NCBI RefSeq assembly: GCF_003014495.1 | Contig: NZ_PYGC01000003.1 | Coordinates: forward strand, 186,001 to 250,000 | Direction: 5' to 3' | Length of the DNA: 64,000 nucleotides | Source: Prolixibacter denitrificans | Lineage (GTDB): Bacteria; Bacteroidota; Bacteroidia; Bacteroidales; Prolixibacteraceae | Notes under the pieces: model-generated | Databases searched by the model: none | Told to the model about the DNA's origin: nothing | What the model saw: the letters and a program-made list of their open reading frames with translations, nothing else | Shown: positions 19,109 through 28,108 of the stretch, one piece after another | Position numbering within the stretch: the stretch's first letter is position 1 | Layout of the letters: each line of letters opens with the position of its first letter | Made by a program: the position numbers and the translations under genes

Positions 19109-21064
19109 TTATTTGCTCGTCACATACCGCTTCAGGTTTTTGGCGATTTCAATCCGGTCCAGGAATGAATCGATGACCATATCGTAGAGTTTCTCTTTTA
19201 GTATCTCATCCTCGATGCCAAAATCGATGTTCGGGTTATCGTTCACCTCCATTACATACACTTTTCCGGCAATCTCCTTCAGGTCGACACCGTAGAGGCC
19301 GTCACCAATCAGGGCAGCAGCTTTCAATGCCGTTTCGAGCACATGGGCGGGTACCTCACTTACCGGCAACGTTTCCGAATCGCCCGACTGCTCCTCGGCT
19401 TCTCCCTGCCAGTTATAAATCTGCCAGTGGTCCCGGGTCATGTAGTATTTGCAGGCAAACAGCGGCGTGTTGTCGATAATACCTATACGCCAGTCGAACT
19501 CCGAGTAGGTAAACTCCTGGCAAATCACCATGTCCGATTTCCGGAACAGCGTATTCAGCACCTCAAGAGCTTCCTCTTCATTGTTCACTTTCGTGATACC
19601 TAACGAAAAGGCGCTGTCGGGTTGTTTAATCACAGCCGGGTAGCTCACTCCGTCGAGGTCTTTGGGATGGAACAGGTTCTTGGTAAACACCGTGGTCTGA
19701 GGTGTTAGAATTTTATTATTCCGGAACAGCTCGTTCTGGTATATCTTGTTGGAGCAACGCAGAATCGACCACGGGTCGTCAATCACCACCAAACCTTCGG
19801 CGTAAGCCAGTCGCGACAATTCATACGTATGGTTGTTCACGCTGGTGGTTTCGCGGATAAAGAGCGCATCGAACTCGTTGATTTTATCGAAATCGTTCTT
19901 CGTGATAAACTCGGTATAAATTCCTTTCCGGTTAGCCGCCTGTTTGAATAGTTTCAACGCCGTGTTGCACGACGGTGGCGTCGTTTCCTGCGGGTTTACC
20001 AGTATAGCTAAATCATACTTATAAGCGGTTAGCCTCGATTTGTTGAAGCGTTTCTTATCGAAATATTCCCGTGCAAATTCATTGACCACCATCAGCTCAT
20101 CATCGCTGATTCTGTTCAGGTTCAGTGGCTGTATCTTTTTGATCATCCACTCCCCGTTCCGGATGAAGTATACCTTGAACAATGGCGTTTCAAACAGCTG
20201 GTATAGTTTCGGTGCGAGCCTCTTCATACCCCGCACGTTGGTGTGTCCGAAGTATACGTTCATGCTGAACTCTTTCTCCTTCACGTTTCTCAGCGCTACT
20301 TGCAACAACTCATTTATCTCAGTGGTGATGGAACGAATCACGCCCGTGCTGCTAAAATCACGAATGGTGGTCACGTTGGGAATAACCCGCTGTCCGCGGG
20401 CCGATGCCAGCAGCGACACATAGTAACCGTAGCTCTGGTACTGATACGAGCTGCACAGGTTAAAAACGCGCAAGCTGTTGTCGGTATGGTACTCCGAATT
20501 GTTGATGTATTCCTTCACTGAAATGATTTTGGCATTCACATCGGTAAAGTGCCAGGTACGCGGCTGGTTCACCACGATGATATTCTTCATCCGGTTTTGA
20601 TAGAGAGAAGCGGGTAACAGATACTCCAGCTTCAAACAATCATATCCTTCCGCGTAGTAATCCTTCACGGTCTTAACAGGTTGAAAACCCCATTGCTGAT
20701 ACCATTCCAGCAACTTCTCATTCGACGCGTCCGCTTCCAGTATCAGCTTTTCCTGCTTCCGCGAAGTCGCCAAATTCAGCGCGTGAGTCAACAGAAAACG
20801 CCCCACCCCTTTACTCTGGAACTCAGGTAAAGTAGCAATAGAATAAATACGCAGTGATTTCTTGTGCAGATGCAGGACCATCGCTCCCACCGGCCGACGC
20901 CGGGATTTTCCTTTTTCGGCTATCCAAACCTCCTGGAACGGGCTGGAGAGGCTTAGTGCCAAACTCCGACGGTTGTTTCGCTGGAAAGCAGGAAATGATT
21001 CTTTCTCCAGTTTTTCCAGGAAAATCAAGTCTTCCGGCGAAGACTTTCTAATGTGCAACGTCAT
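19109..21064 (-). CDS. GNAT acetyltransferase fused to RLAN and RimK-like ATP-grasp domains
   Basis: 651 residues in three parts. Residues 1-150 are a GNAT domain, with SIATLPEFQSKGVGRFLL as the acetyl-CoA loop. About 160-350 match the RimK-like ATP-grasp N-terminal region (RLAN), and about 370-640 are an ATP-grasp ligase with PAVIKQPDSAFSLGITKV, VICQEFTYSEFDWRIG and the metal-binding VMEVNDNPNIDFG. RimK-like ligases join amino acids to peptides, proteins or small molecules. The GNAT could acetylate a substrate or form a second amide bond. This architecture suggests a peptide-type amide product of unknown identity. It is a single-gene unit, convergent with the cassette-like array. Confidence 0.85.
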   Translation of the reverse strand: MTLHIRKSSPEDLIFLEKLEKESFPAFQRNNRRSLALSLSSPFQEVWIAEKGKSRRRPVGAMVLHLHKKSLRIYSIATLPEFQSKGVGRFLLTHALNLATSRKQEKLILEADASNEKLLEWYQQWGFQPVKTVKDYYAEGYDCLKLEYLLPASLYQNRMKNIIVVNQPRTWHFTDVNAKIISVKEYINNSEYHTDNSLRVFNLCSSYQYQSYGYYVSLLASARGQRVIPNVTTIRDFSSTGVIRSITTEINELLQVALRNVKEKEFSMNVYFGHTNVRGMKRLAPKLYQLFETPLFKVYFIRNGEWMIKKIQPLNLNRISDDELMVVNEFAREYFDKKRFNKSRLTAYKYDLAILVNPQETTPPSCNTALKLFKQAANRKGIYTEFITKNDFDKINEFDALFIRETTSVNNHTYELSRLAYAEGLVVIDDPWSILRCSNKIYQNELFRNNKILTPQTTVFTKNLFHPKDLDGVSYPAVIKQPDSAFSLGITKVNNEEEALEVLNTLFRKSDMVICQEFTYSEFDWRIGIIDNTPLFACKYYMTRDHWQIYNWQGEAEEQSGDSETLPVSEVPAHVLETALKAAALIGDGLYGVDLKEIAGKVYVMEVNDNPNIDFGIEDEILKEKLYDMVIDSFLDRIEIAKNLKRYVTSK

Positions 21065-21224: not shown

Positions 21225-21923
21225 TTAATTCGTACTCATCAGGGTTGAGATATGCTCCGCGCTCACCTCATCAAAATCTTTGATAGTTAACGATGCTCCT
21301 ATTGCATTTAATTCCTCAGCCGAATGACTGGTGGTTACCCCAATAACTCTTAAGCCCGCCCCTACAGCCGATTTTACTCCTGCAAGAGAATCTTCAAATA
21401 CGACACAACGGTAATCAGGAATAGCTATTTGCTCCAATGTCTTCAGATAAATTTCCGGATGTGGTTTACCATGAGTTACCCGGGTCCGGTCGATTATGAA
21501 TTCAAAATACTCTCTTAGTTGAAGCTTGTTCATCACCATATCGACATTCTTAGTCGGTGCCGACGTAGCCACAACGATTCTGTGACCAGCAGAACGCATT
21601 CGTTCCAGGAAATTACGTAATCCTTTCACCGGGCCTACATTCATCTCAGTTAACATACGGCGAAATTCAGCATCAACTGCCTCATTGAAATTATTTACCT
21701 CATCCTGTGTCAGCTCCCTTTTTAGTAAGGTACGAATTGCTGTGTCACCTGTTGTGCCTGAAACAATATTGGAGAAGTCGTCATCGCTAATAAAAACATT
21801 CTCTTTCTCAAAAACAGATCGCCAAGCCTTTATATGTAATGGATTGCTGTCGATAATCACACCGTCCATGTCAAATATAATCCCCATCTGCTCAACGTTT
21901 TCTCTGCTTTCCATAATCATCAA
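21225..21923 (-). CDS. HAD family phosphatase, beta-phosphoglucomutase-like
   Basis: 232 residues. Motif I DMDGVIIDS with both Asp is followed by a helical cap domain, then motif II VATSAP, the motif III Lys in HGKPHPEIY and motif IV FEDSLAGV. This is the subfamily IA pattern of beta-phosphoglucomutases and sugar-phosphate phosphatases. Several starts are possible (21923, 21914 or 21887); the last gives MGIIFDMDGV directly. An exact -7 box lies upstream at 21945-21952, so starts at or after 21923 all fit. The substrate is unknown. Confidence 0.88.
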   Translation of the reverse strand: MMIMESRENVEQMGIIFDMDGVIIDSNPLHIKAWRSVFEKENVFISDDDFSNIVSGTTGDTAIRTLLKRELTQDEVNNFNEAVDAEFRRMLTEMNVGPVKGLRNFLERMRSAGHRIVVATSAPTKNVDMVMNKLQLREYFEFIIDRTRVTHGKPHPEIYLKTLEQIAIPDYRCVVFEDSLAGVKSAVGAGLRVIGVTTSHSAEELNAIGASLTIKDFDEVSAEHISTLMSTN

Positions 21924-21944
21924 ATTGACAAGTTTCTAGAGGAG

Positions 21945-21952
21945 CAAAATTA
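21945..21952 (-). promoter_or_regulatory. -7 promoter box for the HAD phosphatase gene
   Basis: The minus strand reads TAATTTTG, an exact TAnnTTTG, 22 bp before the first possible start at 21923. No TTTG is at the expected -33 distance. Confidence 0.4.
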
Positions 21953-22121
21953 CGGTTTTAACTGACCGATTGAAATTATTCAAATTAAGAAAAAATGAAT
22001 TCTTCGCCCGGCTATCTGATTACTGAAGACTTCTCATAATGAGAATGATAAAGAGCCCAAAAATTTTCATTCTACTGAGTCTTATCGAACTAATATCTAT
22101 TTCTCTCGCTAGTCGATATAC

Positions 22122-22154
22122 AAAAAAAGAGACCCGGAGCATTACCGGGTCTCT
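22122..22154 (-). terminator. Intrinsic terminator of the M16 peptidase gene
   Basis: A perfect 10-bp stem, AGAGACCCGG (22128-22137) with CCGGGTCTCT (22145-22154). On the minus strand it runs into seven T residues. It lies about 60 bp past the stop of the peptidase gene. Confidence 0.85.
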
Positions 22155-22216
22155 TCCGCAATTCACCTATTAAAACGGGCTTATGTATTCCGGAGGCAGC
22201 TCCGGCACAAGCCAAA

Positions 22217-25153
22217 TCAATATCCAAAAATATCTTCGAGCGCCAGCTCTTCAACCGGCCCGACTGTTTTCAGTGCATTCAAATCGGCATCATTCCGGTT
22301 ACCCAGTACCAGGTATGTAAAGTGCTGGTTCTTCATATGGTCGTTAAAGAAATTCTGCACATCGGCAATGTCCGATTTCCCGACCTTGTTGTAAACATCC
22401 TCGCGGATATCCTTGTCGATACCCAACCGCTGGTTCCGCAACCAAGTCCAGAAAATGTTCGTTTTGTTGATGCGTTCCGTCTGGATATTCTTCATCACGC
22501 TCTCGCGGGCGATTCCAAACAGACGATTATCGGAAATCATGTTATCCAACAAACCGTTCATGGCACCAATCGCATCCATCATTTTATCGGCTTGCGTGTA
22601 AACAGCTCCGTTGATGTAGAAAGGTTCTTCTTTCTTCGATGGCGCACTGTAACCAGCCCAGGCAGAATAAGCCAATGCTCTCGATTCACGGATTTCCTGG
22701 AATACAACCGAACTCATCGAGTTGCCGTAATATTCATTGAACAGCTGCGAGTTAACGTACGTATCGGGCGAGAACGGCAGACTTTGCGACATCATCCGGA
22801 TATCGACCTGCGATTTGTCGTAGTTCACGAAGAAAACCTTATTCTCATTTGTCGGCTGCATCACAAATTCTTTTTCTGCCGGGATCGATTTCAACTCGGC
22901 CGGAATCTGGTGCCCTTCCTTCACCATCTGGAAAACCTGATCGGAAGTCGTCGGACCATAATAGAACACGCGATGTGGGTAATGACTGAACTCGTGCAGT
23001 TTGGCAACCAAAACAGCCGGATCAACTTTGTGGAGTTCCTCTTCCGGAATCACATTCGTGAACGGATTCTCCTTGCCGTACTGTCCATAATACTGCAGAG
23101 CACGACGAATCTGATATTGATTCAGTTTGGCATCGGCACGCTCTTTCAAAAGACCATCCACCATTTTATCATAGGCTTCCTGATCGGGTTGGGCATTGGC
23201 CAGCAAATGCTCCAGCAATTCCATTCCCTTCTTCGCATTCTTATCCAAACCGGAAATGAATACATACGAACGGTCGTTACCGGTGTTCACATTCAAATCG
23301 ACTCCCAGCTTATAGAATTCCTTTTTCAGGGCAGCAGCCGGATATTTATCGGTTCCCAGGTAAGGCAAATATTTAACCGCCAGTTCGAGTAACGGATCGT
23401 GATTCCGTCCCATGTCGACTACATAATCCAACTGGAAGAGCTCATTGGTTTCATTGGGAATATAGTCCATCTTCACTCCTTCTGCCAACGGCTTCTCATC
23501 GATAGCCTCCTCAAAGTTGACAAACCGGGGCTCCAGGGGCTCGACTTTCTGAGCCGTAAAATCAGTGAAGAACTTCGACTGATCCTGACGGTTGATGGAG
23601 ATAGGCGTGATTTCCGGCTTCTCTACCTTCACCAGCCCTTTCGCTTCTCCTGTTCGTTTATAGGCCAACACATAGTTATCTTTATAATGCTCGCGGGCAA
23701 AAGCCACCAATTCATCTTTGGTGATTTTCTCCATCTCATCGTAGAAAGCCAGTTCGTCGGCCCAGTTGGTTTTCTTGATAAAGGAATTCAGATAATTGAA
23801 GACTCTCCATTTACCTTCGTTCTGACGGATGGCATTTAAACGCAATTGATTGACGGTAGCCTGAATCAGCCAATCGTCAAACTCTCCGTTCTTCACTTTT
23901 CCAACTTCTCCCAGCAACAGGTCACGAACCTCGTCAAGCGATTGTCCCTGTCGTGGTGTTCCATACAGCCGATGTTCGCCATACTCGTTGTGGAAGTCAC
24001 TGTAGCTACCCGCTTTCAATACTTTCTGGCTTTGATTCAAATCGAGGTCGATCAAACCAGCCGTAGAGTTCGTCAGGATATAATCAATCATCGTCACAAA
24101 TTTCCTATCGGGCGAATGATAGCCATCAAAACGGTATGCCAGCATCACTCTTTCCGCATCAGGACCATATACATCCTTCACAATCGGCTTCTCAATCGGT
24201 TCCAGTTTGGCGTGTTTTACTTCCGGAAGAGGTTTCGATTTATACTTACCGAAGGTAGCGTCGACCATTTGAATTGTTTTATCGTAATCGAGATCTCCAC
24301 TAAGAATAACGGCCATGTTGTTCGGAACATACCAGGTATGATAGAAATTCATGATGTTAACCATCGAAGGATTTTTCAGGTCTTCGGGCCTTCCTATCAC
24401 ATCGGTTCCCAGCGGATGTCCGGGATAGAGGTTACTAATGATAGCCCGGTTCAAACGGCGTCCGTCATTGTCCTGCGACATGTTGAATTCTTCGTACACT
24501 GTTTCCAACTCGGTGTGGAACAAGCGAAGAACCGGGTCGCTGAAACGCTCGTATTCCATGTTGATCCACTTATTTAGTTCGTTGGATGGAATATCGTTCA
24601 TATAAACAGTAAACTCATATGATGTACCGGCATTGGTATATTTCGCACCAATCGTGGAAACCATTTTGTCGTACTCGTTTGGAATCGCATATTTCGAAGC
24701 CTCCTGCGATACCTCGTCAATCTGTTTGTAAATGGCTTTCTTCACTTCCGGATCGGTCGCGGCTTTGTGCGCTTCGAATAAGCCGGATATGGAGTCGAGC
24801 AATACCTTTTCTTTTCCCCAGTCATTGGTACCGAATTCGTCGGTTCCCTTGAACATCATGTGCTCGAAATAGTGAGCCAGTCCGGTTGTTTCTCTCGGGT
24901 CATTCAATGAACCGGCACGCACGCCGATAAAAGTAAAAATACGGGGTTCGTCGGTGTTCTGCGACAAATAAACCTTCAATCCATTATCCAGCGTGTAAAT
25001 GCGGGTTTTCAACGGATCGTTGGTTACTTCTTCGTACTTATAACCGTTGGAATCGGTTTTCTGAAGGGTTACATACTTCGATTTCTTCTCACTACAAGAG
25101 AAGAACAGGCTAATGACGGTCATCACCATCAGCACTTGGAAAAGCTTTTTCAT
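22217..25153 (-). CDS. M16 family zinc metallopeptidase, lipoprotein
   Basis: 978 residues, two tandem M16 halves as in pitrilysin-type enzymes. The N-terminus is a lipoprotein signal with lipobox LFFSC (Cys20), so the enzyme is probably membrane-anchored in the periplasm or outer membrane. The inverted zinc motif HYFEH lies near residue 91 in GLAHYFEHMMFKG, with the third ligand Glu downstream in ETVYEEFN. The second half (from about 550) lacks the zinc motif, as usual, and has the Arg/Tyr-rich substrate region around RALAYSAWAGY. It is a single-gene transcription unit with its own terminator. Confidence 0.93.
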   Translation of the reverse strand: MKKLFQVLMVMTVISLFFSCSEKKSKYVTLQKTDSNGYKYEEVTNDPLKTRIYTLDNGLKVYLSQNTDEPRIFTFIGVRAGSLNDPRETTGLAHYFEHMMFKGTDEFGTNDWGKEKVLLDSISGLFEAHKAATDPEVKKAIYKQIDEVSQEASKYAIPNEYDKMVSTIGAKYTNAGTSYEFTVYMNDIPSNELNKWINMEYERFSDPVLRLFHTELETVYEEFNMSQDNDGRRLNRAIISNLYPGHPLGTDVIGRPEDLKNPSMVNIMNFYHTWYVPNNMAVILSGDLDYDKTIQMVDATFGKYKSKPLPEVKHAKLEPIEKPIVKDVYGPDAERVMLAYRFDGYHSPDRKFVTMIDYILTNSTAGLIDLDLNQSQKVLKAGSYSDFHNEYGEHRLYGTPRQGQSLDEVRDLLLGEVGKVKNGEFDDWLIQATVNQLRLNAIRQNEGKWRVFNYLNSFIKKTNWADELAFYDEMEKITKDELVAFAREHYKDNYVLAYKRTGEAKGLVKVEKPEITPISINRQDQSKFFTDFTAQKVEPLEPRFVNFEEAIDEKPLAEGVKMDYIPNETNELFQLDYVVDMGRNHDPLLELAVKYLPYLGTDKYPAAALKKEFYKLGVDLNVNTGNDRSYVFISGLDKNAKKGMELLEHLLANAQPDQEAYDKMVDGLLKERADAKLNQYQIRRALQYYGQYGKENPFTNVIPEEELHKVDPAVLVAKLHEFSHYPHRVFYYGPTTSDQVFQMVKEGHQIPAELKSIPAEKEFVMQPTNENKVFFVNYDKSQVDIRMMSQSLPFSPDTYVNSQLFNEYYGNSMSSVVFQEIRESRALAYSAWAGYSAPSKKEEPFYINGAVYTQADKMMDAIGAMNGLLDNMISDNRLFGIARESVMKNIQTERINKTNIFWTWLRNQRLGIDKDIREDVYNKVGKSDIADVQNFFNDHMKNQHFTYLVLGNRNDADLNALKTVGPVEELALEDIFGY

Positions 25154-25708
25154 AAGTAGGTTAATTTAAATATTGATGAAACATTTAGCTGTCTGGTTTA
25201 ATTGGATATCAAGTTACTAAAAAAACCATACAATTCAATTGAGCTATCTTTAAGACGAGTAAAACGAGCTGATAAGTTGCGTGATAACTTTCGCTTTATA
25301 CAACCTGCTTTCGCTGTATTTACAAATCCTCCCCAACCATCCGGCGTCTGTTTATCCCGACAATCGCTCCTAATAAATATGTTGAATAGCAGAATTATGT
25401 TACTGTATTTTTTAAGATTTTAACTCCAGGTTGATGAAAAAGAGGGTAACATTTTATAGGCCATCGGTTACAAACCGTAAGAAAAGAGCCAAATGAAAAT
25501 GGAAGTTGATGAAGAGAATCTTCAATATGGAGGACAATTGAGATCATATCTACATCGTCTAAAACCAGCTTTGATGCCGGAAACGGCGTCCGAGGACATA
25601 AAAAAACTGCCGGGTGGCGGCCCGGCAGTTAGGAGTTAACGTGCGTAGTTATGAAGAAACTACAGCGTGGACAAAAAACAAGTTTGGGCAACTTGTGCGT
25701 TAAATATC
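25154..25708. other. 555-bp intergenic region
   Basis: AT-rich and without a convincing gene. A 47-codon frame near 25494-25640 runs through the terminator at 25600 and is not credible. The M16 gene promoter must lie near the left end, but I see no exact TAnnTTTG box. Confidence 0.5.
25600..25630 (-). terminator. Intrinsic terminator of the small exported protein gene
   Basis: A perfect 10-bp stem AACTGCCGGG (25605-25614) with CCCGGCAGTT (25621-25630). On the minus strand it is followed by a run of T. It sits about 80 bp past the stop at 25709. Confidence 0.85.
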
Positions 25709-26188
25709 TTACATCAGAAATTTTACATCTTTAGCTAAAGCCGGGAAATAGGCTGCAATCAAACCAAGCGCTTCTTCTTCGCTCAACTGGTTTGTCGAAA
25801 GTTTTCCCTGACCTTCCAGTGCCTTTTCATTCAGATAATATCCGTTAACCGTCGGGTCAAAACGTTGGAATTTAGCATTCACCAACTTAGCGCCAAAACC
25901 GCGTTTATTGCAGACATACCTCACTTCAAGATTTTTGGAGCGAACAATGTAGTTACGGCATTTCGAGGTCTTATCAACCAAAATGGTAATCGGATTCTCT
26001 GAATTTTCGTAAGATAACTGATAGGCTTGCAGTTCCTCACCGCCTGCTTTAACCGGAGCGATTTGTTTTATTTGGTAAGTTCCCAAAGTACTATTCGACT
26101 GCCCCTGGATGGTCTTCGCAGAAAGCGGTCCTACAAACAGAATACTCACAATAAAAAGCAAAGTTGTTGCGATAGATAATTTTTTCAT
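25709..26188 (-). CDS. Small exported hypothetical protein
   Basis: 159 residues with a signal peptide (MKKLSIATTLLFIVSILFVG, likely cleavage after PLSA). The mature part is beta-rich and has two Cys (SKCRNY, VRYVCNKR) that could form a disulfide in the periplasm. LSEEEALGLIAAYFPAL ends the protein as a helix. No known family is recognised. Codon use is like that of the neighbours, and the gene has its own terminator. Confidence 0.75.
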   Translation of the reverse strand: MKKLSIATTLLFIVSILFVGPLSAKTIQGQSNSTLGTYQIKQIAPVKAGGEELQAYQLSYENSENPITILVDKTSKCRNYIVRSKNLEVRYVCNKRGFGAKLVNAKFQRFDPTVNGYYLNEKALEGQGKLSTNQLSEEEALGLIAAYFPALAKDVKFLM

Positions 26189-26390
26189 GGCTTAACAATT
26201 TTTATTTCCTGTTACAGTTATACCATTCAGTTATCAATCCACATGCCAAAGAACTCAACAACCTGATAACCTACACCAATAGCAAGAACCAAGCCATACC
26301 TGAGGAAATCATTTCTGTTCGTTTTCGGAAAGAGAATTGAACGGATACGAACAAAACAAAAATATATGTTAAGCTAATCTATCTTCACAT

Positions 26391-26421
26391 AAAAAGCCCG
26401 CTCAATCGGCATGAGCAGGCT
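26391..26421 (-). terminator. Intrinsic terminator of the M49-like peptidase gene
   Basis: The minus strand reads AGCCTGCTCA, a 7-base loop, TGAGCGGGCT and then five T. The stem is 10 bp with one G:U pair. It lies 22 bp past the stop. Confidence 0.8.
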
Positions 26422-26443
26422 CCTATTTCTTCAAAAGTCGGGC

Positions 26444-28108
26444 TTACTTCAGTCCCAGAACAGCTTTTCCCTGCTCAAACACAATGTCTTTGGGAATACC
26501 GGCTGCTGAAATCCGATCCAAATCGCTTTGTAGTTCCGGACGGATGTAACCGTTTTCTTTTATCAATTTGGCAGCAGCGTTATAATCACCGTCGCCCTGA
26601 ATCTTCAGCAAATCATCCGATAATGCAGTCATTGCCTTCTTCATCTTCTCAAAATCGACGCGGTACGTTCCGGTTTCAGTATCACGGGTAAAAGCACCTT
26701 GCTGCTCAAAATAATAGAAACGAATCATGTTGGCTTTGCCATGTGCACTGGCTGCTCCAAAACGCACAGAACGGAAAATTCCAGCCATAAACGTCACATA
26801 ATTGTCCATTAGGTCTTCACCGGACAACTCGCCCATGTCGTGCAATTTGGTGATTACCCACAGTCCAAGGATGTCAGCTTTGCCTTCTTCAATAGAAGTA
26901 TAGGTATCTTTCAATGCTTCCCGAACTGTTTGTTTTCCGTCGATGGTTTTTCCAAGCCCCAATCCGTGAGCTACTTCGTGGAACATGGTATTTTCGAAGA
27001 AAGCGTCGAACTTGATGTGTGAACGCTGGTCGGGAGCAATCAACAGATCGGAAATCGGTACCAGAATCTTGTCAAACTTGGCACGCATGGCATTTTTCAA
27101 CTGCAGTTTCCGGCTGCCTTTGGCGGCACGAACCCGCTCGTCATTCGGCAGGTTGATAGCAATGGTTTTGGAACCGGCATTGCAATCGCCTGCGTAATAT
27201 AACACGTCGTAAGCATTCAAGTCGGAATCGGATCCCGGCATCTCTGCTTTGTACTCGGGAGGACAAGGCAATGCCCGCTGCAAATCTGGCAAAAGAGCGG
27301 CAAATTTAGCCAACCGCCGACTCCATACTTTGTCTTTTACCAGGATAAACGCTTCGTGCGACGTTTTGTATCCGAAAAGCTGATCTTCATAATTCTCGAT
27401 AGGTCCCACTACAAAATCGATGGAGTTGTTCTTCATATCGAGCCACGCCATATCGCTGTCGTAATAGTCATCCGTCAGCAACGCATCGGCACGCAGTTCC
27501 AGGTATTTTTTCAGTCCCGGGTCTTCAGCGAATTCGGCAGCTTGACGAATCAACGAAGCAGCTTTCTCAATTTGGGCTTTAAAATATTCATGGTAAGGAA
27601 TTGATATCAGCTTACCATCTTTATCCCGACGAATCATGGTGTACTGACTGGTTTTTGTCGAATCCTTCCAGTCGTTAAACTCCTGTTCCGTCATGTCCTT
27701 AGGATAAAAGTTGGCTCCTTTGGGTTTGGGACCTACTCCTTCGACAAACGGCTTATTATTATTCAGACGTTCCCACGGGCCATAGTTAATCATGGCGAAA
27801 TCTCTCTCAGCCTGTGTTTTCAGACTGGTCAACAAAGCTTCTTTGTCGCCGTAGGCTTCCTGCCAGAAAATGCCATCCATGATATCCGCCGCATCAAACA
27901 TCAACGACAACATTTTCTTCTGGTTCTCGTCGAGCTGGCTCATATCGGTAGTCAGTTTAACCTTCGCAAACTCTTTTACTTTTTGCGCGACAACATCCTC
28001 CTGCTCAGACTCGCTTTTGGAGGAATTCTTGCATCCTCCCGCCATTAATAATACAATCATCAGTGAAAACAAAGAGATTAGTTTCATACTTATTAGTTTT
28101 TTGGTCAT
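26444..28108 (-). CDS. M49-like (dipeptidyl peptidase III family) metallopeptidase, lipoprotein
   Basis: 554 residues with a lipoprotein signal ending at MAGGC; a start at ATG 28087 (residue 8) is also possible. The zinc site is HEVAHGLG, a five-residue HExxH, followed about 30 residues later by EEGKADILGLW. Classical DPP III has the six-residue HELLGH with EECRAE. The short form is known from plant NUDT3 C-terminal domains and a few bacterial DPP III proteins. The expected role is removal of dipeptides from peptide N-termini outside the cytoplasm. An exact -7 box lies upstream at 28164. Confidence 0.82.
   Translation of the reverse strand: MTKKLISMKLISLFSLMIVLLMAGGCKNSSKSESEQEDVVAQKVKEFAKVKLTTDMSQLDENQKKMLSLMFDAADIMDGIFWQEAYGDKEALLTSLKTQAERDFAMINYGPWERLNNNKPFVEGVGPKPKGANFYPKDMTEQEFNDWKDSTKTSQYTMIRRDKDGKLISIPYHEYFKAQIEKAASLIRQAAEFAEDPGLKKYLELRADALLTDDYYDSDMAWLDMKNNSIDFVVGPIENYEDQLFGYKTSHEAFILVKDKVWSRRLAKFAALLPDLQRALPCPPEYKAEMPGSDSDLNAYDVLYYAGDCNAGSKTIAINLPNDERVRAAKGSRKLQLKNAMRAKFDKILVPISDLLIAPDQRSHIKFDAFFENTMFHEVAHGLGLGKTIDGKQTVREALKDTYTSIEEGKADILGLWVITKLHDMGELSGEDLMDNYVTFMAGIFRSVRFGAASAHGKANMIRFYYFEQQGAFTRDTETGTYRVDFEKMKKAMTALSDDLLKIQGDGDYNAAAKLIKENGYIRPELQSDLDRISAAGIPKDIVFEQGKAVLGLK

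What the first reader, a model, noticed from the sequence alone, without database searches (positions are those of the whole stretch)
19109..21064. Three-part enzyme: GNAT + RLAN + RimK-like ATP-grasp
One polypeptide combines an acetyltransferase with a peptide-ligase-type ATP-grasp and its characteristic N-terminal region. ATP-grasp amidoligases joined to GNAT partners are known from comparative genomics as likely makers of peptide-like metabolites or protein modifications. The product here is unknown, and no obvious substrate gene or peptidase partner flanks it.
Basis: partly seen in the sequence, partly recalled or inferred. Interest (0 to 1): 0.6.

Follow-up and report, generated by a model that had tools for sequence, protein, structure and literature searches.

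The report
Acetyltransferase fused to peptide-bond-forming ligase
One bacterial enzyme carries an acetyltransferase, a shrunken ligase-like middle part and an intact-looking ligase that makes amide bonds, and comparisons suggest it makes a small acetylated peptide alone, where most of the relatives examined sit with a set of partner enzymes.

Summary
In detail: window 19109-21064 (-) encodes 651 aa, GNAT - RLAN (PF14401) - RimK/LysX-type ATP-grasp, catalytic residues intact. I recall this fusion from Iyer et al. 2009 and Pfam text; the paper is not held, so this is unchecked. The survey adds: (1) Of 110 dereplicated loci, 32 have GNAT fused to or abutting the ligase; 0 of 32 have the usual partners (C39-like peptidase, GCS2 ligase, FGase-like hydrolase) within 3.5 kb, against 75 of the other 78. 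Azospirillum, outside that count, has a GNAT-C39 fusion beside the ligase. (2) 25 fused proteins form one group (100/99), next to a Verrucomicrobia locus with GNAT and ligase as overlapping genes in the same order: a likely pre-fusion state. (3) RLAN folded alone resembles ATP-grasp ligases end to end without about a third of the fold (ArgX, Z 11.3): probably a degenerate ATP-grasp; sequence comparison does not confirm it. Best reading: a bifunctional synthetase of an N-acetylated, probably glutamate-type peptide, working like NAGGN synthetase but outside that family. The product is unproven.

The parts
19109..21064 (-). whole gene, GNAT-RLAN-ATP-grasp protein, 651 aa
   Evidence: relatives
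20615..21064 (-). GNAT domain, residues 1-150; acetyl-CoA loop Q83-S-K-G-V-G88; E110 and Y122 in 26 of 26 fused proteins
   Evidence: Pfam; fold Z 22.0 to Ard1 (4pv6) and 21.9 to RimI (2cnm); residues
20045..20596 (-). RLAN domain, residues about 157-340 (PF14401 match 184-326); probable degenerate ATP-grasp fold
   Evidence: Pfam; model of residues 157-347, mean pLDDT 90.5; fold matches
19757..20017 (-). pre-ATP-grasp subdomain, residues 350-436, with invariant R404
   Evidence: fold alignments to ArgX/LysX/RimK start near residue 350; R404 109 of 109
19223..19756 (-). ATP-grasp catalytic part, residues 437-614; K480, R526, D594, E606, N608
   Evidence: Pfam; Z 27.8 to ArgX 3vpb; residues

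Best explanation
A bifunctional cytoplasmic synthetase that makes an N-acetylated short peptide (or N-acetyl-aminoacyl amide). The C-terminal ATP-grasp domain activates a carboxylate as acyl phosphate and joins it to an amine, most likely with glutamate or a glutamyl compound on one side. The N-terminal GNAT acetylates the alpha-amino group of the substrate or product. RLAN, a degenerate ATP-grasp with a conserved motif (N202, Y209, G213-Y214-Y215, R223) but lacking part of the fold, holds or positions the acceptor. SHOWN by computation: domain order, intact catalytic residues, repeated physical linkage of GNAT and this ligase, absence of the usual partner genes nearby. INFERRED: that both domains act on one substrate, that the substrate is glutamate-like, that the product is a small molecule, and the role of RLAN.
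For: Domains and residues intact. The ligase fold is nearest ArgX, LysX and RimK (Z 26-28), which join glutamate-type substrates (established knowledge). Three RimK residues reported to touch poly-glutamate (R64, R189, N262; PMC10092738, passages) align with R404, R526 and N608, kept in 109, 108 and 108 of 109. GNAT sits with this ligase in several arrangements: fused; upstream overlapping (L090) and downstream separate in 4 loci (L021, L022, L026, L027); as a GNAT-C39 fusion beside it (L171); divergent next to it in Aeromonas (L170); and before an RLAN-less ligase in 4 of 8 viral loci. Own genome has no GCS2, FGase or DUF3335 match at E 0.001. Precedents: Ngg acetylates one glutamine and forms the peptide bond to a second (PMC8070244, passages); for R2K ATP-grasps linked to GNAT genes, Burroughs et al. 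proposed an acyl cap on the ligated peptide (PMC4431377, passages).
Against: No substrate, product or phenotype is known. The GNAT resembles protein N-alpha-acetyltransferases (RimI, Ard1) and RimK itself modifies a protein, so a protein target fits too. The protein is far below the RimK-family cut-off (59 of 143.4 bits), and NAGGN synthetase is not among the 25 families shown there. The glutamate preference rests on three residues, of which R526 and N608 may simply serve general ATP-grasp chemistry; the other four RimK contact residues were not mapped.
Confidence: 0.42

Rival explanations
1. Protein modifier: GNAT and ligase act on a protein terminus, like RimI (N-terminal acetylation) and RimK (C-terminal glutamylation) combined in one chain.
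For: Sequence matches of the GNAT in solved structures are led by annotated N-terminal or N-alpha acetyltransferases and RimI, and its fold matches listed are Ard1 and RimI. The ligase is nearest LysX, ArgX and RimK, which act on a carrier or ribosomal protein. For jumbo phages, GNATs and R2K ATP-grasps were predicted to modify host proteins (PMC7824862, passages).
Against: No gene or short segment recurs beside the fused gene in more than two loci outside the window's genus, so no linked target is seen; scores for RimI (53.3 of 86.4 bits) and the RimK family (59 of 143.4) are below cut-offs. A target encoded elsewhere is not excluded.
Confidence: 0.28
2. The GNAT is a regulator: it acetylates a lysine of the ligase, or of another enzyme, and takes no part in the product.
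For: 78 of 110 loci are not GNAT-linked, so GNAT is not needed for ligation as such.
Against: In the surveyed loci GNAT-linked ligases have no GCS2 or FGase beside them (0 of 32), which fits a substitute chemical step better than an added regulator. E110 and Y122 align with RimI positions that I recall as catalytic for alpha-amine acetylation and are kept in 26 of 26.
Confidence: 0.12
3. Maturation enzyme of a ribosomal peptide (graspetide-like).
For: ATP-grasp macrocyclases appear among the fold matches (7drp, rank 40).
Against: Among 2610 short segments within 1.5 kb of fused genes, none recurs in more than two loci outside the genus; nearest folds are RimK, LysX and ArgX.
Confidence: 0.06

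Closest known systems
RLAN-containing ligases (PF14401; recalled: Iyer et al. 2009, PMC3268129, not held)
   Same: Same RLAN plus RimK-like ATP-grasp; I recall GNAT fusions being noted for this family in Pfam text
   Different: 75 of 78 surveyed ligases without linked GNAT have a C39-like peptidase, GCS2 ligase or FGase-like hydrolase nearby; the window gene does not
N-acetylglutaminylglutamine synthetase, Ngg/PA3460 (TIGR03103)
   Same: Acetylation and peptide-bond formation by one protein making an acetylated dipeptide (PMC8070244, passages; that Ngg is a GNAT-ATP-grasp fusion is recalled)
   Different: TIGR03103 not among the 25 families shown for the window protein; its only match seen was a weak one to the separate GNAT of L021 (16.9 of 569 bits); partner amidotransferase TIGR03104 only below cut-off in the genome (122 of 570.1 bits)
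RimK, LysX and ArgX
   Same: Fold of the C-terminal domain (Z 26-28), catalytic residues, three Glu-contact residues of RimK
   Different: 16-20% identity; extra RLAN and GNAT; below RimK-family cut-off
R2K-clade ATP-grasps linked to GNAT genes (PMC4431377, passages)
   Same: ATP-grasp ligase with an associated GNAT, for which an acyl cap was proposed
   Different: Different ATP-grasp clade by profile: the window protein had no R2K match at E up to 1, while the fused relative L075 had a weak one (24.6 of 26.3 bits)
RimI and Ard1 N-alpha-acetyltransferases
   Same: Fold of the GNAT domain (Z about 22)
   Different: Below rimI cut-off (53.3 of 86.4 bits); fused to a ligase

Membership tests
RLAN family PF14401 | profile match over curated cut-off | tested here: met
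   154.3 bits against 25
GNAT superfamily | acetyl-CoA loop Q/R-x-x-G-x-G/A | tested here: met
   window Q83, G86, G88; in 26 fused proteins Q or R 26, G86 24, G88 26
GNAT superfamily | GNAT fold | tested here: met
   Z 22.0, 145 residues, rmsd 1.5 to 4pv6
RimI | TIGR01575 over cut-off | tested here: not met
   53.3 of 86.4 bits
RimK-like ATP-grasp PF08443 | profile over cut-off, and fold | tested here: met
   26.1 against 21 bits; Z 26-28 to RimK, LysX, ArgX
RimK family alpha-L-glutamate ligase TIGR00768 | profile over cut-off | tested here: not met
   59 of 143.4 bits
RimK family alpha-L-glutamate ligase TIGR00768 | glutamate ligation activity | not testable with these tools
   needs enzyme assay
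NAGGN synthetase TIGR03103 | profile over its cut-off (569 bits, as printed) | tested here: not met
   43 families at E up to 1, best 25 shown, the last at E 0.0013 and 17.8 bits; TIGR03103 is not among them
NAGGN system | partner amidotransferase TIGR03104 in genome | tested here: not met
   best match 122 of 570.1 bits; all 14 control genomes also match, 0 over the cut-off
C39 - RLAN ligase - GCS2 - FGase operon | partner genes beside the ligase | tested here: not met
   none within 3.5 kb
C39 - RLAN ligase - GCS2 - FGase operon | partner families elsewhere in the genome | tested here: not met
   no match at E 0.001 for PF04107, PF05013, PF11814; the operon's own C39-like family (PF13529) was not searched genome-wide
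ATP-grasp fold (for RLAN) | fold similarity | tested here: met
   the 22 Foldseek matches at E up to 0.001 are, by my knowledge of the entries, all ATP-grasp-fold proteins; the 50 VIA rows likewise, Z 8.1-11.3, a range that itself calls middling
ATP-grasp fold (for RLAN) | significant sequence-profile similarity to the protein's own ATP-grasp domain | tested here: inconclusive
   hhalign probability 6%, E 0.0063, 145 columns

The most novel reading that the evidence does not exclude
RLAN is a degenerate, ATP-site-less copy of a LysX/RimK-type ATP-grasp, so the ligase is a tandem of a dead and a live ATP-grasp in which the dead copy became the acceptor-binding part; and RLAN pathways exist in two exchangeable versions, one finishing its peptide with a GCS2 ligase plus hydrolases, the other with an acetyl cap from GNAT, the second having been compressed into one gene and spread between phyla, with a minimal RLAN-less GNAT plus ligase pair carried by phages.
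Probability: 0.45. Interest if true: 0.6.

Novelty: new member of a known kind. Interest (0 to 1): 0.45.

Why it matters
It reduces an uncharacterised multi-gene peptide pathway, seen here in records of many phyla, to one purifiable protein, so what RLAN ligases make can be tested with one enzyme, ATP, acetyl-CoA and amino acids. If RLAN is a dead ATP-grasp, a domain that Pfam text calls uncharacterised (recalled) gains a structural explanation.

Tried and rejected
Chance ORF: rejected. Stop or frame artefact: no stops inside. DUF3335 (C39) in the own genome: no match. RiPP precursor near fused genes: of 2610 short segments, only 7 pairs of loci share any (3 pairs within the window's genus; L076/L084, L080/L089, L075/L087, L017/L020), none in three loci outside the genus. 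NAGGN synthetase: not supported. Neighbouring peptidases of the window as partners: not supported. Promoter upstream: inconclusive; no TAnnTTTG site in 161 bases; sigma-70-like sites 3 found against 4.0 expected, terminator-like 3 against 2.8. Sequence-level proof that RLAN is an ATP-grasp: weak. Single origin of the GNAT linkage: not supported; the four loci with downstream GNAT do not group with the fused clade and fused L075 lies apart on a long branch beside them, a join the program warns may be false. A class-wide survey of Gammaproteobacteria was not done (one search failed). Literature: searches for RLAN with ATP-grasp, the full domain name, PF14401, and 'RLAN domain' or degenerate ATP-grasp phrases gave no paper on the domain; the one listing did not hold the term in its main text. 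Iyer et al. 2009 is outside the library.

Limits of the count: the genome-contig loci are the best 80 of at least 584 by similarity to the window protein, which favours the fused form; 13 of 13 other relatives' loci and 20 of 34 other phylum loci were extended; partner profiles were built from these same loci with Pfam confirmation on two loci. Of 114 loci, 4 near-copies were dropped (L016, L079, L092, L106). L018, cut by its contig end, is counted as fused although the script labelled it otherwise, and was left out of alignments and trees. Three rows (L082, L084, L086) were cut to their last 488 residues for the trees. L075 and 37 of 75 operon rows were left out of the careful tree. Viral and plasmid loci (L157-L164, L169-L171) are not in the count. 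Fisher's p ignores shared ancestry.

Full report
OBSERVATION. The gene is as described: one 651-aa ORF on the minus strand at 19109-21064. [quoted passage not shown] AlphaFold gives mean pLDDT 87.7 (pTM 0.66), with stretches under 50 at 341-349 and 646-651. The catalytic part folds like ArgX, LysX and RimK (Z 26-28) and the GNAT part like Ard1 and RimI (Z about 22).

ACTIVE SITES. Across 26 fused proteins the acetyl-CoA loop is kept (Q or R at 83 in 26, G86 in 24, G88 in 26), and E110 and Y122 in 26 of 26. Across 109 aligned proteins, fused and stand-alone, K480 is in 109 and D594, E606 and N608 in 108 with one gap each. Three RimK residues that contact poly-glutamate in a crystal (PMC10092738, passages read) align with R404, R526 and N608, kept in 109, 108 and 108 of 109. 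The other reported contacts (S7, R8, S14, S68) were not mapped.

CONTEXT IN THE WINDOW. The downstream neighbour is convergent (Rce1-like protease); upstream on the same strand are a HAD hydrolase, an M16 peptidase, a 159-aa protein and an M49-like peptidase. The upstream genes are shared with the two same-genus loci L015 and L016. Outside the genus, the six other full-length fused loci of the family share only isolated neighbours of 90 aa or more: one between L017 and L020 (30% identity) and a distant one between L024 and L015 (28%). Among fused loci elsewhere in the phylum, L069 and L075 share one (42%). No neighbour recurs widely, so the fused gene largely travels alone.

CONTEXT ELSEWHERE. 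RLAN occurs in 14 of 61 genomes (relatives, own included) and in 35 of 296 sampled in the phylum (own included). Stand-alone RLAN ligases in the phylum sit in a conserved operon: C39-like peptidase, RLAN ligase, GCS2-type carboxylate-amine ligase, N-formylglutamate-amidohydrolase-like hydrolase (FGase) (Pfam names from L058 and L061). I joined these loci with 80 from a collection scan and scored neighbours with profiles. After 4 near-copies were removed, 110 loci remain. GNAT is fused or abutting in 32 (26 fused, L018 fused but cut by its contig end, 5 abutting). None of the 32 has any of the three partner families within 3.5 kb; 75 of the other 78 have at least one (73 GCS2 or FGase, 56 C39; Fisher p about 1e-24, ignoring ancestry). 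With complete 3.5 kb flanks the counts are 0 of 26 and 59 of 61; L090 is among the six with short flanks. Two operon loci (L118, L156) also have a GNAT within 3.5 kb, but these score only 24 and 37 bits against the fused-GNAT profile.

GENOME-WIDE CHECK. I searched 47 genomes: 20 fused, 4 with downstream GNAT, 23 operon-type (10 of these 47 were assigned by reading-frame length without a neighbourhood: G121, G149, G299 as fused; G091, G109, G126, G263, G271, G295, G326 as stand-alone). All 23 operon genomes have a GCS2 of 60-105 bits beside the RLAN gene; 0 of 20 fused genomes do. Three fused genomes carry another GCS2 elsewhere (over 200 bits: G008, G030, G283), eight only weak matches (about 20-30 bits), nine none; three of the four downstream-GNAT genomes also carry a strong GCS2 elsewhere. 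FGase: none in 19 of 20 fused genomes and one weak match in G145 (22 bits, 42.6 with its neighbours, so over the cut-off); present in 16 of 23 operon genomes and, elsewhere in the genome, in 2 of 4 downstream-GNAT genomes. The window's own genome has no match to either, nor to DUF3335.

EXCEPTIONS. The separation is between GNAT and GCS2/FGase, not between GNAT and C39 everywhere: in Azospirillum brasilense (L171, outside the count) a GNAT-DUF3335 (C39-like) gene overlaps the RLAN ligase gene. In Aeromonas caviae (L170) a GNAT gene lies divergently next to the ligase. A P. aeruginosa plasmid copy (L169) has none of the partners. Three stand-alone loci (L113, L117, L137) have neither an abutting GNAT nor an operon partner; L113 has a related GNAT 2.3 kb upstream (77.7 bits), and L117 has little downstream flank.

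EVOLUTION. In a tree of RLAN plus ATP-grasp, 25 fused proteins from records of Bacteroidota, Balneolota, Delongbacteria, Bacillota and Mycoplasmatota form one group (100/99); adding Verrucomicrobia L090, with GNAT and ligase as separate overlapping genes in the same order, gives the next group (100/98). The L090 GNAT scores 161 bits against a profile of fused GNATs, inside the range of the fused proteins (67-249), against 78 for L113, 60-72 for the downstream GNATs and at most 37 for the remaining GNATs. This looks like a pre-fusion state. Four relatives in the window's own family with downstream GNAT form a separate group; with L075 they suggest that GNAT joined the ligase at least twice, though long branches make their place unsure. 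The root is not known, so gain and loss cannot be told apart.

RLAN. Folded alone (residues 157-347, pLDDT 90.5), its 22 Foldseek matches at E up to 0.001 are, by my knowledge of the entries, all ATP-grasp-fold proteins, led by ArgX and LysX; one of the 50 listed (8fw5, rank 42, probability 0.15) is not. In the second alignment all 50 listed entries are ATP-grasp fold; the best, ArgX, has Z 11.3, 174 residues, rmsd 4.5, spanning ArgX residues 1-282 while about 100 of 275 have no counterpart. Fully invariant RLAN residues include no lysine, aspartate or glutamate, though D80 of the segment is nearly invariant, so a usual ATP/Mg site is unlikely. Against this: Z 8-11 is middling by the tool's own note, and the profile comparison with the protein's own ATP-grasp gives 6% probability. 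Probable, not shown.

PHAGES. Of 8 viral-contig loci, 4 (L157, L159, L162, L163) have a GNAT gene overlapping the start of a ligase gene that lacks RLAN; in 3 (L158, L160, L161; the last two look alike) the RLAN-less ligase had no GNAT match; L164 has a ligase with a truncated RLAN. GNAT plus ligase is thus a minimal recurring unit. A jumbo-phage survey predicted that phage GNATs and R2K ATP-grasps modify host proteins (PMC7824862, passages), which speaks for the protein-modifier rival.

MECHANISM. The nearest functional precedent is Ngg, which acetylates one glutamine and forms the peptide bond to a second (PMC8070244, passages); an acyl cap from a linked GNAT was also proposed for R2K ATP-grasps (PMC4431377, passages). 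I propose the same type of reaction here, with RLAN as acceptor-binding part and a glutamate-type substrate. It would work like Ngg but is not in its family by profile.

KNOWN AND NEW. I recall the GNAT-RLAN-RimK architecture from Iyer et al. 2009 and Pfam text, neither read here, so the finding is filed as a new member of a known kind. The partner exchange, the pre-fusion locus, the RLAN fold and the phage pairs may be new; no paper in the searched library was found on the domain, but the key paper is outside it.

Noticed in passing
L157, L159, L162, L163 (viral contigs): Phage-like contigs carry GNAT plus an RLAN-less version of the same ATP-grasp ligase as overlapping genes; function in phages unknown.
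   Followed up: partly
L171 2793-5470: Azospirillum brasilense has a GNAT-DUF3335 (C39-like peptidase) fusion gene overlapping an RLAN ligase gene.
   Followed up: partly
L057 3273-6160: The RLAN ligase gene of genome G239, and the GCS2 gene next to it, each match in two reading frames: a frameshift or a sequence error.
   Followed up: no
window 21225-28108 (-): HAD hydrolase, M16 peptidase, a 159-aa protein and an M49-like peptidase upstream, in the same order in the two same-genus loci L015 and L016.
   Followed up: partly
L164 4998-6155: Viral-contig ligase with most of RLAN missing (profile 2-83, then 181-485), as if by an internal deletion that keeps the ATP-grasp part.
   Followed up: no
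window 25709-26188 (-): 159-aa protein, conserved in the genus, with only a weak match to the PanZ GNAT domain (19.7 bits against a cut-off of 22).
   Followed up: no
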